Shown: piece by piece, positions 14,432 to 20,490 of the stretch | Layout of the letters: the number at the start of each line of letters is the position of its first letter | Numbering within the stretch: position 1 is the stretch's first letter | NCBI RefSeq assembly: GCF_903166585.1 | Contig: NZ_CAESCM010000011.1 | Coordinates: forward strand, 18,204 to 82,203 | DNA from: Pedobacter ghigonis | Lineage (GTDB): Bacteria; Bacteroidota; Bacteroidia; Sphingobacteriales; Sphingobacteriaceae | Direction: 5' to 3' | DNA length: 64,000 nucleotides | Position numbers and translations under genes: made by a program | Notes under the pieces: model-generated | What the model saw: only the letters and a program-made list of their open reading frames with translations | Told to the model about the DNA's origin: nothing | Databases searched by the model: none

Positions 14432-15775
14432 TTGAACAAAGCACAAAACAGTTTGGAAAAGACGACTAAAAGGCCCGCAGAAGGAAAACTTGTTTACCGG
14501 ATTTTGCTAATTCTCTCCCTGGGCATATTGCTGATTGCCGAAGGTTTTTTCGGTTTCCGCCTGCATGAATTATCCGGTAAACAGGAACAGATCAAACATG
14601 ATTATTCCCGGGTGAACAACATTACTTATGGGCTGTTTTCGGTTCAGCAATGGAAGGATAAGGTAGCCGATATTGTCCATCATCAGGTTTCAGGCCTTAA
14701 AATAACCCGCCAGCAGAAAAAAGTATTGCAGGGCGAAGTGGAGCAGGTTCTTTTGGCGCTCATTGATAAGGCTGAAGCGCTGGTAAACAAGCCTAAAAAA
14801 ACCATCAGCGGCAAAATTCAAAAGTTCGCCATCAAAAATTTTGTTAACTCAGACAGTATCCGGGCACAGGTACCCACCTTTGCTAAAAAAATTATCGCCG
14901 AAATAGATAACCCTAAAAATAAAAAACAACTGGGGCGAATGGCTCTGGGCGAATTTAATGAAATAGCCCGGGAAGAAAGCCAGGATACGGCATTTGTTGC
15001 CAACAGGGCCATACTGAACAAAATATACAATAATTACGGGGTGTCTTCCAATCAACAACTCAACCAAAAACTCATTGCCTCGCTGGCCAACATACATAAA
15101 CAAACCTACTATTATTGTTTTGGCATGTTAGCTTGCGTAATTGTGGTGCTTGCATTCTGGTGGTTCCTGCGTAAACGCACAGATTTGCACACGCCACTAT
15201 TCATTATGTCGCTGCTTTTCGCATTCATACTTTTAGCTGTCGGACTTACTGCATCGATGATCGAGGTCGATGCCCGTATCCGTTCTTTAGACTTTGTATT
15301 ACTTGGAGAACATGTGGTGTTCGCAGATCAGGTGCTTTTTTTTCAGAGCAAAAGCATTATGGATGTGGTTAGGGTGCTGATCAGCCAGTCGGCGATAGAT
15401 TCGGTTCTGGTTGGTGTGCTGATACTCGCTTTCAGTATCCTGTTCCCAGTGGTAAAACTGAGCTCAACGGGTGTGCACCTGCTAGGCGGAAAGCGCTGGG
15501 CAGAGAACCGGCTGGTGCGTTACTTTGCTTTTCAATCCGGAAAATGGAGCATGGCGGATGTTATTGTTATTGCGATCCTGATGGCTTATATCGGTTTGAA
15601 CGGGCTTCTGGAAAGCCAGTTAAAGGCACTGAATATCAACAACGAGTCGCTAACAGTGCTCACCACCAACAATACTGCACTACAGCCAGGCTATATTATT
15701 TTTATCTGCTTTGTATTGTACGGATTAATTCTATCTACGATTCTCAAATCCATTACCACCCGCCAGGTGCATTAA
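14432..15775 (+). CDS. PqiA-like membrane protein, tandem copy 1
   Basis: The protein has 447 residues and is the first of two tandem paralogues. One N-terminal TM segment (~23-43) is followed by ~180 residues of polar, helical sequence, then five or more TM segments from ~225. The C-terminal half (FPVVKLSSTGVHLL ... FAFQSGKWSMADVIVIAILMAYIGLNGL) looks like paraquat-inducible protein A. No ATG is near: TTG at 14432 or TTG at 14453 would start it, and the choice is uncertain. The gene lies 13 bp before its paralogue, so they form an operon. PqiA family proteins belong to envelope lipid-transport systems, but no PqiB/MCE partner is present. Confidence 0.68.
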   Translation: MNKAQNSLEKTTKRPAEGKLVYRILLILSLGILLIAEGFFGFRLHELSGKQEQIKHDYSRVNNITYGLFSVQQWKDKVADIVHHQVSGLKITRQQKKVLQGEVEQVLLALIDKAEALVNKPKKTISGKIQKFAIKNFVNSDSIRAQVPTFAKKIIAEIDNPKNKKQLGRMALGEFNEIAREESQDTAFVANRAILNKIYNNYGVSSNQQLNQKLIASLANIHKQTYYYCFGMLACVIVVLAFWWFLRKRTDLHTPLFIMSLLFAFILLAVGLTASMIEVDARIRSLDFVLLGEHVVFADQVLFFQSKSIMDVVRVLISQSAIDSVLVGVLILAFSILFPVVKLSSTGVHLLGGKRWAENRLVRYFAFQSGKWSMADVIVIAILMAYIGLNGLLESQLKALNINNESLTVLTTNNTALQPGYIIFICFVLYGLILSTILKSITTRQVH

Positions 15776-15788
15776 ACCCGAAAAATTA

Positions 15789-17135
15789 ATGAGCAAACTG
15801 CAACAATATATCACCAGCGCTACCAAACCGGCTACCAGCCATTCAAAATCAGTGTCATTCGTCCTGGTCATGGCACTTTCGCTACTACTATTAGCAGCAG
15901 CCTACTGTGGATACCGTTTTAGAGCCCTTAGTTATAAACAGAAGCGTATTAAGGAAGATTATAGTCTTTCGAACAATATCACTTTTGGTATCTTTTCGGT
16001 TGACCGCTGGGGAGATAAAATATCTGCTGTGGTAGACCGCCGGGTAAAGGGCTTTAAATTAAACAAAACCCAGAAAGCAGATATGCAACAGGAGGTAGAA
16101 ACGCAGTTGCACCAGATGGTGAACAAAGCCGTGGCAGAGGTAACCCGGCCACAGAAAGGACTTGGCGCAAAACTCAAGAAACTGGCTTTCAACACTTTTG
16201 TAGATGTAAAGGAAATCCATGCACTGGTTCCCTCCTTCTCGCGCACGATCGTAAACAAAATAACCAGTCCGAAAAGCATCAAAAAGTTAAAATCTATAGC
16301 GAAGGGGAAACTCGATGAACTCGAAGCCCAGACTTATGACCGCAGCGACGGGACCATTTCGTCTCTAGAACGGAGTATTTACCGAAAATACCAGGTGGAA
16401 AATGCTGCCGCTTTCAACAAGCTTACTGATGCTAAACTGAAAAGGATTAAAGGGCTTAGTTATAACTATGCAATAGGAATGACAGCTTGTATCGCGATCG
16501 CACTGCTGCTTTGGCTGACCTTACGCAGGAAAGTAGACCTGGAGGTTCCCCTTTTTATCATCTCATTGCTTTTTGCCTTCATTCTGCTGGCAGTAGGTGT
16601 ATCTTCTCCCATCATAGAGGTTGATGCCAGGATAAGTACACTACAATTCGCATTACTTGGAGAAAAACTTGTCTTTAACAATCAGGTGCTTTTCTTTCAA
16701 AGCAAAAGTATACTGGGCATTATTGGTACGTTAATAGAACAACCTAAACCCGATGCGGTACTTGTGGGGGTGTTACTGCTACTATTTGTGGTCATCCTCC
16801 CCTTGCTAAGGCTGGTTGCCAGAGGCTTGCAGGCATCATGCAGTGAACTGCTGGGCAATTCTAAATTTGTCCGTTTTCTGGCTTTTGACCTTGGCAAGTG
16901 GGATATGGCAGATGTAATGGTGGTAGGGATAGCCATGACTTACATTGGGCTTAACGGGATCTTAAAAAGCCAGCTCTCGGGCCTCAATATAAAGAGCGAA
17001 ACATTAAATGTAGTTACGGCAAATAATTCGGCGTTGCAATTGGGTTTCTTCATCTTTGTAGCCTATGTGGCCTATAATATCATCTTATCCTCGATCCTCA
17101 AACGTATAGATGAACAAAATGGTCCCTGCAACTAA
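15789..17135 (+). CDS. PqiA-like membrane protein, tandem copy 2
   Basis: The protein has 448 residues and is collinear with copy 1. Shared blocks include DYS.xNNIT.G.FSV near residue 60, PLFIxSLLFAFILLAVG, IEVDARI, NQVLFFQSKSI and GKWxMADVxVxxIxMxYIGLNG. The long N-terminal extramembrane region has diverged more than the membrane part. It starts with an ATG 13 bp after copy 1. Two products in one operon suggest a hetero-oligomer. The stop overlaps a short inverted repeat (17129-17135 and 17146-17152). Confidence 0.7.
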   Translation: MSKLQQYITSATKPATSHSKSVSFVLVMALSLLLLAAAYCGYRFRALSYKQKRIKEDYSLSNNITFGIFSVDRWGDKISAVVDRRVKGFKLNKTQKADMQQEVETQLHQMVNKAVAEVTRPQKGLGAKLKKLAFNTFVDVKEIHALVPSFSRTIVNKITSPKSIKKLKSIAKGKLDELEAQTYDRSDGTISSLERSIYRKYQVENAAAFNKLTDAKLKRIKGLSYNYAIGMTACIAIALLLWLTLRRKVDLEVPLFIISLLFAFILLAVGVSSPIIEVDARISTLQFALLGEKLVFNNQVLFFQSKSILGIIGTLIEQPKPDAVLVGVLLLLFVVILPLLRLVARGLQASCSELLGNSKFVRFLAFDLGKWDMADVMVVGIAMTYIGLNGILKSQLSGLNIKSETLNVVTANNSALQLGFFIFVAYVAYNIILSSILKRIDEQNGPCN

Positions 17136-17950: not shown

Positions 17951-19039
17951 TCAATGGGCATTAAGCATTTCCTGCATGCTGTAATGTTGTATTGTTTTTT
18001 GTTTAAGCGGGTTGGCGCTCCATTCTTCCCATACATTGGTTGAGGGGTTGTAGCCACATTTTAGCGGTTTGGATATATCAAGTCCTGCCTGGTTTGTATG
18101 TGTACGTTCTGTAAATGCCCTGCAATCTGTACAAACATTTCTGAACTCACAATCCCTGCAAACCATGATATCATTTTTAGTGATGTTCCAGTAAGCCTTA
18201 AATTCTTTAATATTTATGGCATCTTCTAAAGCAATGTCATTGATGTTTCCAAAACTCTGAGGCATTGCCGGGCAGTTTTTTATATTGCCATTTTTATCAA
18301 TACCTATTTTTTTATTAAGGCATGAATTATGATTAACGGCTTCTAAAACCTTCATAAGGTTAGTATCAAAATACTTTAAGTCTACTTTTCCACAAGAATT
18401 CAGTTTTAAATGTTGATTGGTAAAAACCAGGTTAAACCTGAAAATATCAGTTGGCTCAAACGGAGCATTTTCACATTTATAAAATATCAAACTGTAGATC
18501 CTGGTACAGTTCTTATTAAGTGTTTTTATAAAATCCTCATCAACTTCCGGGTGATACAGAGAGAAAATCTCGATGCTTTCTACACATGAGTCGTTGAATG
18601 TGGATTCTAAATTTAAAAAAGATGTTAAAGGAAACACAGTTTCACAATAGAATACCAAATGTTTTATCCCTAAATTAGCTATAGATTGCACCAGCTGTGG
18701 CGATAGCAATAAATCAGCCGTCTCAATAAATATATTCGAAATTTTGCCTGCCTCTCTAAATTCGAGAGAGAGTAGTGGAAAATTTCTATCCCAATCATGC
18801 TCAGTAATAAAGCCATATTCTTTTTCCAACAAATAATCGAGATATTCTTTTACTATTTCTTTTGATTCTTCATCATAAAAAGCAAATACTTCTTCAATAG
18901 AATTGGATTTCAACTCCTCAACAATGTTGTACAATTCTAAAGATTGCAACTCAGAATTGTTGCGCTGTAAATCAGAGATCAGGATCCTGTTAACACCTTT
19001 GGTTATTAAAATATCGCTAAATAAATTAAAGTACTTCAT
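17951..19039 (-). CDS. gwsS: Grasp-with-spasm system SPASM domain peptide maturase
   Basis: The protein has 362 residues and is the last gene of the RiPP operon. The C-terminal ~110 residues are a SPASM-like cysteine cluster: CPAMPQSFG..., then CRDCEFRNVCTDCRAFTERTH and a final CGYNP. No CxxxCxxC radical SAM motif is visible in the N-terminal part, as is typical of the GwsS type, which has SPASM without a working radical-SAM core. It likely binds Fe-S clusters and helps the ATP-grasp enzyme process the precursor. It starts with an ATGA overlap on the 59-codon gene, so translation is coupled. Confidence 0.85.
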   Translation of the reverse strand: MKYFNLFSDILITKGVNRILISDLQRNNSELQSLELYNIVEELKSNSIEEVFAFYDEESKEIVKEYLDYLLEKEYGFITEHDWDRNFPLLSLEFREAGKISNIFIETADLLLSPQLVQSIANLGIKHLVFYCETVFPLTSFLNLESTFNDSCVESIEIFSLYHPEVDEDFIKTLNKNCTRIYSLIFYKCENAPFEPTDIFRFNLVFTNQHLKLNSCGKVDLKYFDTNLMKVLEAVNHNSCLNKKIGIDKNGNIKNCPAMPQSFGNINDIALEDAINIKEFKAYWNITKNDIMVCRDCEFRNVCTDCRAFTERTHTNQAGLDISKPLKCGYNPSTNVWEEWSANPLKQKTIQHYSMQEMLNAH

Positions 19040-19215
19040 AACAATCTGCTAATTGGCTTATATGGTTTTACCAGCATCAGAAAGTTGGTCTTGTAGCAAT
19101 TGCATGTGCCATAAATCACCTCATTACTTTTTTGATTATTTTTTTCACCTCTGTATTCATCCACAAACCTGAATGTAAGCGGCAACTTATTTTTTTCTTC
19201 GATTTGGTATCTCAT
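19036..19215 (-). CDS. 59-residue protein between gwsG and gwsS, ATGA-coupled both sides
   Basis: I read this frame directly on the minus strand. ATG at 19215-19213 overlaps the GwsG stop (19214-19212). Fifty-nine codons follow, and the TGA at 19038-19036 overlaps the GwsS start (19039-19037). Both junctions are ATGA. The product is MRYQIEEKNKLPLTFRFVDE then a Lys/Asn-rich turn, GTCNCYKTNFLMLVKPY and SRLL. The features are a C-x-C pair in the middle and a basic C-terminus, with no signal peptide. Perfect double coupling argues that it is a real operon member. I know of no named family. A role as accessory or recognition protein for the maturases is inference. Confidence 0.75.
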   Translation of the reverse strand: MRYQIEEKNKLPLTFRFVDEYRGEKNNQKSNEVIYGTCNCYKTNFLMLVKPYKPISRLL

Positions 19216-20114
19216 AAATATTCGGCTATAGCTTTCTCTGCAGCATAATTACACATGGCTGAAACCCCTAAAAATTGGCCAACGGTATTTACCTCTAAAA
19301 AATAAAATTTCTCTCCGCTCTTAATAAAATCTATTGATCCACAGTTTACATCCAGTAACAGCATTAATTGATGCGTTTTCTCTTCAATTTCAACAGGAAG
19401 ATTATATCTCACATTTCGGTTAGGCTTTTGAAGATTGTACTTTCTGAAATCGGTTTTGGTTCGCTCATCACTTTGTGACATTATTGCTGTAGAAAAGAAC
19501 TCCCCGTTCAAATAAAAGCTCCGTATTTCGAAATCTTTCTCAATTTTTTCCTGAAAAAATGTGATAAAAAAACTGTCTTTTTCTTTATGCTCTATTATGT
19601 TGGTGTACATAATACTTTCCGCATAATCTTTGTAATTATTGATGGTAATGTTTCCGGTTAATGGCTTTATAATGGTTTTATCCAAAACCACTTCAGCCGT
19701 ATCTTCAGCCAAATAAAACTCAGGAACATCTAGTCCTAGCTTTTTGGCCTGCTCTAACACCATAAGCTTGTTTACAGCACTGGTGCTTTGCTTATTGACG
19801 TGTTTTTTTGATTCAATTTTTTTGATTACATAATCCTGCAACCAATGTTGGTGCTCCTGCATGTGGATATCTACAGCCGGGTTATCGTATTGGATATTTT
19901 TAAACCTTAATCTCCCTCTTCTGTACCAAACACTGGTTACTTCATCGATATAAAAGCAGTTTCTATGGCTTTCTATGTAGATGCGTTTTTCTTTCGCTCT
20001 TATCTCAAACACTTCATCTTCATCCACCCGAATGAATTTTTTATCCATTGCCAAAAGCCATTTTATAACTTCATTGGTGGTAGTCTCTTGCTTCTTGGAT
20101 ATAATTAAAATCAT
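19212..20114 (-). CDS. gwsG: Grasp-with-spasm system ATP-grasp peptide maturase
   Basis: The protein has 300 residues. MILIISKKQETTTNEVIKWL is the usual beginning of this ATP-grasp family. Later come KPLTGNITINNY (nucleotide-binding loop), FFQEKIEKDFEIRSFYLNGEFF and the metal-binding end FYFLEVNTVGQFLGVS. It is related to microviridin/graspetide ligases, which join Asp/Glu side chains to Thr/Ser/Lys of a precursor by ester or amide bonds using ATP. It is encoded 136 bp after the precursor gene and overlaps the 59-codon gene. Confidence 0.87.
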   Translation of the reverse strand: MILIISKKQETTTNEVIKWLLAMDKKFIRVDEDEVFEIRAKEKRIYIESHRNCFYIDEVTSVWYRRGRLRFKNIQYDNPAVDIHMQEHQHWLQDYVIKKIESKKHVNKQSTSAVNKLMVLEQAKKLGLDVPEFYLAEDTAEVVLDKTIIKPLTGNITINNYKDYAESIMYTNIIEHKEKDSFFITFFQEKIEKDFEIRSFYLNGEFFSTAIMSQSDERTKTDFRKYNLQKPNRNVRYNLPVEIEEKTHQLMLLLDVNCGSIDFIKSGEKFYFLEVNTVGQFLGVSAMCNYAAEKAIAEYL

Positions 20115-20250: not shown

Positions 20251-20490
20251 CTAGTAATTATGAATAGGTTCTCCCGGTGCAAGACGACGGATCTCCCTGT
20301 AAAGGTATTGACCTGTACCATTTTCGCCCGAATAGTGGTCATATTCTATACAACCCTCTCCAACAAATACATTAGATTGAATGTCGGTGTAACCTCCCAA
20401 TGCCCTTCCGCCGTTGATTGACGATAAATCAGTCAGTTTTTGGTTTTCAAGTAAGGAGAAATCCTTTTTCGTTCCTTTTAAATTTTTCAT
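20251..20490 (-). CDS. gwsA: RiPP precursor peptide of the grasp-with-spasm operon
   Basis: The peptide has 79 residues. The leader is MKNLKGTKKDFSLLENQKL then DLSSINGG, the Bacteroidota natural-product leader with a GG-type end near residue 27. The core of ~50 residues is rich in Gly, Tyr, Glu, Asp, Ser and Thr, with one Cys (VGEGCIEYD) and a C-terminal IRRLAPGEPIHNY. Acidic side chains near hydroxyl residues are what an ATP-grasp ligase of this group links. A second GG (ALGGY) lies four residues after the first, so the cleavage site is ambiguous. It is first in the operon. Confidence 0.82.
   Translation of the reverse strand: MKNLKGTKKDFSLLENQKLTDLSSINGGRALGGYTDIQSNVFVGEGCIEYDHYSGENGTGQYLYREIRRLAPGEPIHNY

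What the first reader, a model, noticed from the sequence alone, without database searches (positions are those of the whole stretch)
19036..19215. Unannotated 59-codon gene locked between gwsG and gwsS by two ATGA overlaps
Both its start and stop overlap the neighbouring genes by exactly four bases, a strong sign of a real coupled gene. The product has a C-x-C pair and a basic tail. I know of no fourth named component of grasp-with-spasm systems, so it could be a missed recognition or carrier protein.
Basis: partly seen in the sequence, partly recalled or inferred. Interest (0 to 1): 0.75.

Follow-up and report, generated by a model that had tools for sequence, protein, structure and literature searches.

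The report
Small LPL protein in graspetide operon
A short gene squeezed between two peptide-modifying enzymes of a Pedobacter-type bacterium is real and conserved across the Bacteroidota; it belongs to a family first noted in 2022 (LPL) whose job is untested, and the comparison here suggests that it supplies, as a separate protein, the docking segment that such enzymes normally read from their substrate.

Summary
Window 19036-19215(-) is a 59-codon ORF that overlaps gwsG and gwsS by ATGA at each end. It is a real gene: a homologous small ORF lies behind gwsG in about 134 of 137 gwsG/gwsS loci recovered from Bacteroidota, with dN/dS mostly near 0.1. The claim that no fourth component is known is wrong: Makarova et al. 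2022 (PMC8939145) described the LPL family in this position and guessed a PqqD-like chaperone role.

New here: (1) a set of 'LPL-less' proteins in this position aligns with the same family (hhalign 94%), joined by a YKPIS[KR]L tail; (2) when the genes are separated, LPL stays with gwsG, not gwsS (13 loci against 0); one locus has two gwsG-LPL pairs for one gwsS; (3) the LPLxFxY segment resembles the microviridin leader helix LPFFARFL that activates ATP-grasp ligases, and is essentially absent from 104 gws precursors; (4) GwsS models with its own leader-recognition (RRE) domain, so a PqqD stand-in is not needed. I favour a trans-acting, leader-like activator or adaptor of GwsG. AlphaFold2 read-through fusions left LPL disordered, so docking is inference. 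The CxC pair is not conserved.

The parts
19036..19215 (-). 59-aa LPL-family small protein gene (gws fourth component)
   Evidence: ORF; homologues between gwsG and gwsS in other Bacteroidota; purifying selection
19212..19215 (-). ATGA overlap of gwsG stop and small-gene start
   Evidence: sequence
19036..19039 (-). ATGA overlap of small-gene stop and gwsS start
   Evidence: sequence
19162..19185 (-). LPLTFRFV segment (residues 11-18), leader-like motif; Pro12 invariant in alignment A3
   Evidence: compare MdnA LPFFARFL in 5ig9_P
19084..19095 (-). YKTN segment (residues 41-44), the family's Y[QNK][TS] motif
19039..19065 (-). PYKPISRLL C-terminal motif (residues 51-59)
   Evidence: conserved as protein, with all four Pro codons used and a 2-44 nt distance to gwsS in all but one case
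19212..20114 (-). gwsG, ATP-grasp graspetide synthetase
   Evidence: TIGR04192 330 bits; closest solved structures MdnC-MdnA 5ig9 and CdnC 7mgv
17951..19039 (-). gwsS, SPASM-domain protein with RRE-like N-terminal domain
   Evidence: TIGR04193 390 bits; model of a homologue matches CteB 5why/5wgg and the RRE TbiB1 5v1v
20251..20490 (-). gwsA precursor peptide with GG leader, no LPL-type motif
   Evidence: TIGR04139 42 bits, PF14406 25.3 bits

Best explanation
The ORF encodes an LPL-family protein, a standing fourth component of grasp-with-spasm graspetide biosynthesis (shown: homology, position, constraint). Most likely it is not a substrate but a leader-like activator/adaptor supplied in trans: its N-terminal LPLxFxY[IL] segment docks on GwsG where the microviridin leader helix PFFARFL docks on MdnC and switches the ligase on, while the precursor GwsA, which lacks that segment, is recognised through its own GG leader by the RRE domain of GwsS. 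The conserved YKPIS[KR]L tail would hold a partner, probably GwsS, so that GwsG, GwsS and GwsA are brought together (all docking steps are inferred).
For: Family and position; 94 of 115 members and 43 of 58 clusters are recovered when held out. Tied to gwsG: in every locus where the genes are separated (13 distinct loci, six with another gene inserted) the gap is between LPL and gwsS, never between gwsG and LPL (largest gap 112 nt, no gene in it); L070 has gwsG-LPL-orf-gwsG-LPL-gwsS. In 20 whole genomes every LPL hit at E<0.01 lies beside a gwsG (compared). Leader-like motif: strict pattern in 60 of 122 LPL proteins and 0 of 104 gws precursors, loose pattern 89 of 122 against 4 (1 in a leader); resembles MdnA KALPFFARFL in 5ig9_P; GwsG's nearest structures are MdnC-MdnA and CdnC. 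The microviridin leader is an allosteric helix and works in trans in vitro (PMC7823629). GwsS has an RRE-like domain. Partner-protein-dependent graspetide synthetases exist (PMC13097080).
Against: AlphaFold2 of a gwsG-LPL read-through left LPL at pLDDT 24-46, and of an LPL-gwsS read-through at 33-55: no docking seen, though with only 9 and 12 fused rows and forced linkers. Mirror-tree signal is shared between G (partial 0.25) and S (0.35), not significantly different and slightly for S. In the window's clade the GwsG segment that anchors the leader in MdnC is about four residues shorter. The motif is short and degenerate, and about a quarter of members lack even the loose pattern. The LPL profile finds no leader peptide in the PDB.
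Confidence: 0.42

Rival explanations
1. LPL is a PqqD-like chaperone that carries the precursor to the SPASM protein GwsS (the proposal of Makarova et al. 2022). It would bind GwsA and present it to GwsS.
For: It is usually directly upstream of gwsS (117 of 134 within 20 nt); mirror-tree partial correlation with GwsS is 0.35; published proposal.
Against: GwsS models with an RRE-like domain of its own (best hits CteB 5why/5wgg; RRE TbiB1 5v1v, TM 0.65, prob 0.99), which is the fold that PqqD has. LPL is shorter than a PqqD/RRE domain and no wHTH is predicted. Where the genes part, LPL stays with gwsG.
Confidence: 0.2
2. LPL is a structural subunit or assembly factor that stabilises GwsG and/or GwsS, as MirC does for MirB in rosaritide biosynthesis, without a leader-like role.
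For: Near-strict co-occurrence and overlapping genes; partner-dependent graspetide synthetases with copurifying complexes are known (PMC13097080); conserved tail motif.
Against: No fold or interface predicted; does not explain the leader-like motif or its absence from the precursors.
Confidence: 0.28
3. LPL is itself a second modified peptide (a substrate).
For: Small, and encoded in a RiPP operon.
Against: No GG motif in the window protein; conserved parts are at both ends rather than around a variable core; unrelated to the precursors by profile comparison (prob 0.3%); constraint like the enzymes; precursors vary in number per operon while LPL is single beside each gwsG.
Confidence: 0.05
4. 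A spacer ORF kept only for translational coupling of gwsG to gwsS, its protein irrelevant.
For: 4-bp overlaps at both ends.
Against: Protein-level conservation with synonymous variation in the motif codons, dN/dS near 0.1, and LPL retained where gwsS is 100-1200 nt away.
Confidence: 0.02

Closest known systems
LPL family of Bacteroidetes 'branch 5' graspetide loci (Makarova et al. 2022, PMC8939145)
   Same: Small protein between ATP-grasp and SPASM genes, LPL signature, no GG motif; the same family and position.
   Different: That paper says always directly upstream of the SPASM gene and treats non-LPL proteins there as unrelated. Here the gene stays with gwsG when separated, and a set of the non-LPL proteins aligns with the family, most clearly through the YKPIS tail.
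Microviridin leader peptide (MdnA, PFFARFL) with MdnC, PDB 5ig9
   Same: LP[FL]xx[KR][FY][LIV] segment; the ligase is homologous to GwsG; the leader also works in trans in vitro.
   Different: There the segment is part of the precursor; here it sits on a separate, conserved protein with no core peptide.
PqqD and other RREs
   Same: Small auxiliary protein of a SPASM-containing RiPP pathway.
   Different: LPL has no predicted wHTH fold, and GwsS already has such a domain.
MirC and CorC partner proteins of graspetide synthetases (PMC13097080)
   Same: Strictly co-occurring partner on which the synthetase may depend.
   Different: MirC is a chaperone-domain protein of over 300 aa and CorC a divergent oxygenase; no relation is apparent from their descriptions, not compared by sequence.

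Membership tests
LPL family (PMC8939145) | LPL signature motif in the N-terminal half | tested here: met
   NKLPLTFRF at residues 9-17
LPL family (PMC8939145) | encoded between branch-5 ATP-grasp and SPASM peptide maturase genes | tested here: met
   TIGR04192 and TIGR04193 neighbours above cut-off
LPL family (PMC8939145) | small, no GG motif | tested here: met
   59 aa, no GG in the sequence
LPL family (PMC8939145) | sequence similarity to the published alignment (their Fig. S2) | not testable with these tools
RiPP recognition element / PqqD | wHTH fold of about 80-90 aa with three beta strands | tested here: not met
   59 aa; no such fold in either model; no Pfam hit. The AlphaFold rows were shallow for this part.
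Graspetide precursor (TIGR04139/TIGR04149/PF14406) | MKKL-type leader, GG cleavage motif, profile match | tested here: not met
   no hit; profile comparison prob 0.3%
Microviridin-type leader (PFFARFL) function | LP-h-x-x-[KR]-[FY]-h motif | tested here: met
   LPLTFRFV against LPFFARFL; short motif, resemblance only
Microviridin-type leader (PFFARFL) function | binds and activates the ATP-grasp ligase | tested here: inconclusive
   AlphaFold2 read-through gave no ordered docking; needs experiment
Grasp-with-spasm operon | precursor, GwsG, GwsS together on one strand | tested here: met
   gwsA TIGR04139, gwsG TIGR04192, gwsS TIGR04193, all on the minus strand

The most novel reading that the evidence does not exclude
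A natural split-leader RiPP system: the ligase-activating part of the leader has been moved off the precursor onto a dedicated, conserved protein coupled to the ligase gene, so that one activator serves many unrelated, fast-changing precursors, which are recruited by the RRE of a SPASM protein. This would explain why Bacteroidota gws precursors are so diverse beside similar ligases.
Probability: 0.33. Interest if true: 0.75.

Novelty: new member of a known kind. Interest (0 to 1): 0.45.

Why it matters
No experiment on an LPL protein was found in the papers searched here. If it is required, attempts to reconstitute gws peptides from precursor, GwsG and GwsS alone would fail for lack of a 60-aa protein that the family libraries scanned here do not name. 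If it is a trans leader, it separates ligase activation from substrate recognition, which would make the ligase usable on free core peptides and would explain the extreme precursor diversity of this branch.

Tried and rejected
Pfam and NCBIfam scans of the ORF and of 31 relatives: no family. PDB profile search with LPL: only chance hits. AlphaFold2 read-through fusions to look for docking on GwsG or GwsS: LPL disordered in both. A mixed alignment with LPL-only rows was discarded because MAFFT misplaced those rows. Mirror-tree, whole and by halves: no discrimination between G and S. Association of the tail motif with loss of SPASM cysteines: p=0.001, but related sequences count repeatedly and the pattern was loose, so not used. 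Rejected: chance ORF, pure coupling spacer, second precursor, functional CxC pair.

Full report
Observation. The 59-codon ORF at 19036-19215(-) exists as described, with ATGA overlaps at both ends. Its neighbours are a grasp-with-spasm ATP-grasp (TIGR04192, 330 bits) and SPASM protein (TIGR04193, 390 bits), with a TIGR04139 precursor upstream. The ORF itself matches no Pfam or NCBIfam family.

It is a real gene. Among the gwsG loci of the same bacterial family, gwsG-gwsS pairs carry a 50-80 aa ORF between the two genes; gwsG-like loci without a detected gwsS (L028-L031) show none with the motifs. Extending to 167 loci (Pedobacter, Sphingobacterium, Chryseobacterium, Flavobacterium, Taibaiella, Saprospiraceae and others) gives 137 distinct gwsS loci, of which 134 show the family. 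Because that profile was built from members, a cluster-wise hold-out was run: 94 of 115 members and 43 of 58 clusters are still found. dN/dS is 0.04-0.32 in eleven pairs, in the range of gwsG and gwsS. Consensus: MKK..., KLPLxFxx[LI]E, a lysine-rich linker, [YI][QN][TS], then [FP]YKP[IL]S[KR]LL. The window's CxC pair is not conserved.

It is not new as a family. Makarova et al. 2022 (PMC8939145) described the LPL family: 116 small proteins in Bacteroidetes branch 5 loci, always directly upstream of the SPASM gene in their data, proposed to be PqqD-like; they noted possible contact with the ATP-grasp because LPL recalls the leader motif Phhx(1,2)h, which branch 5 precursors lack. Loci without LPL were said to hold unrelated small proteins in the same place. 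The window ORF has the LPL signature, the position, the size and lacks GG: a new member. The trans-leader idea developed below therefore builds on a hint already in that paper.

First, a set of the 'unrelated' proteins looks related: a profile of ten LPL-less members matches the LPL profile at 94% probability, E 1.3e-7, over 51 columns, against 0.3% for the gws precursors as control. The shared KPIS tail is conserved as protein, since all four Pro codons and several Ser codons occur and its distance to the gwsS start varies from 2 to 44 nt with one outlier.

Second, the gene goes with gwsG. Of 134 loci, the gwsG-LPL gap never exceeds 112 nt and holds no gene, while 13 distinct loci have 114-1195 nt between LPL and gwsS, six of them with another gene there (lipoprotein-like in L035, L082, L129, L114 and short in L106; a different protein in L113). 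L070 reads gwsG-LPL-orf-gwsG-LPL-gwsS, two gwsG-LPL pairs for one gwsS. In 20 whole genomes every LPL hit at E<0.01 is beside a gwsG (compared with 7 and 25). Several of the insertions are in Chryseobacterium and may share one origin, so the number of independent events is perhaps three to five.

Third, the N-terminal segment looks like a leader helix. MdnA in 5ig9 reads KALPFFARFLSVSKEES and the LPL consensus NKLPLTFKYIE. The MdnA helix binds the MdnC hairpin (Arg17 to Glu191, Asp192, Asn195) as an allosteric switch and can be given in trans (PMC7823629). GwsG's closest structures are MdnC-MdnA, AMdnB and CdnC with leader. A strict LP[LIVF]x[FYLI] pattern is in 60 of 122 LPL proteins and in none of 104 gws precursors; a loose one in 89 against 4. 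The equivalent GwsG segment is on average acidic, of MdnC-like length in many members and about four residues shorter in the window's clade (only 63 of 115 sequences could be parsed).

Fourth, GwsS does not need a PqqD. The model of a gwsS homologue is confident (mostly above 90) and matches CteB, a sactipeptide enzyme with RRE, radical SAM and SPASM parts (its architecture from general knowledge), and the RRE protein TbiB1 (82 columns, TM 0.65, prob 0.99).

What fails to support the model. In AlphaFold2 read-through fusions of gwsG-LPL (L065) and LPL-gwsS (L019), LPL stays disordered. The tool folds one chain and only 9 or 12 rows carried the fusion, so this is weak evidence against docking rather than a refutation. 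Distance-matrix correlations do not choose between G and S.

Conclusion. Shown: real gene, LPL-family member, conserved fourth component, gene order tied to gwsG, RRE-like domain in GwsS (by model). Inferred: a trans-acting leader-like activator/adaptor of GwsG. The novelty is in the mechanism proposal and in widening and re-anchoring a known family, not in the gene itself.

Noticed in passing
gwsS of L002, L014, L016, L020 and others, including the own genome's second gws locus C1:459855-461972: A GwsS subfamily has lost three of the seven SPASM cysteines together (equivalents of C240, C256, C306; pattern YGCCCSC), leaving four, as if one auxiliary iron-sulfur site were lost; the LPL proteins of L002, L014, L015, L016 and L020 end in KSP[IL]. 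L025 and L027 have lost nearly all.
   Followed up: partly
L035, L082, L129, L106, L070, behind LPL: A recurrent lipoprotein-like protein of about 300 aa (CKNRNxxYITYYNKVNxIDSIYR...) sits in the operon; it fits the published description of 'cluster 23', not tested.
   Followed up: no
window 14432-15775 and 15789-17135, + strand: Two adjacent similar-looking membrane proteins of 447 and 448 aa, apparently a tandem duplication.
   Followed up: no
window 20251-20490: The window's precursor matches TIGR04139 (named for CxxCx5CxxC) but holds a single cysteine.
   Followed up: no
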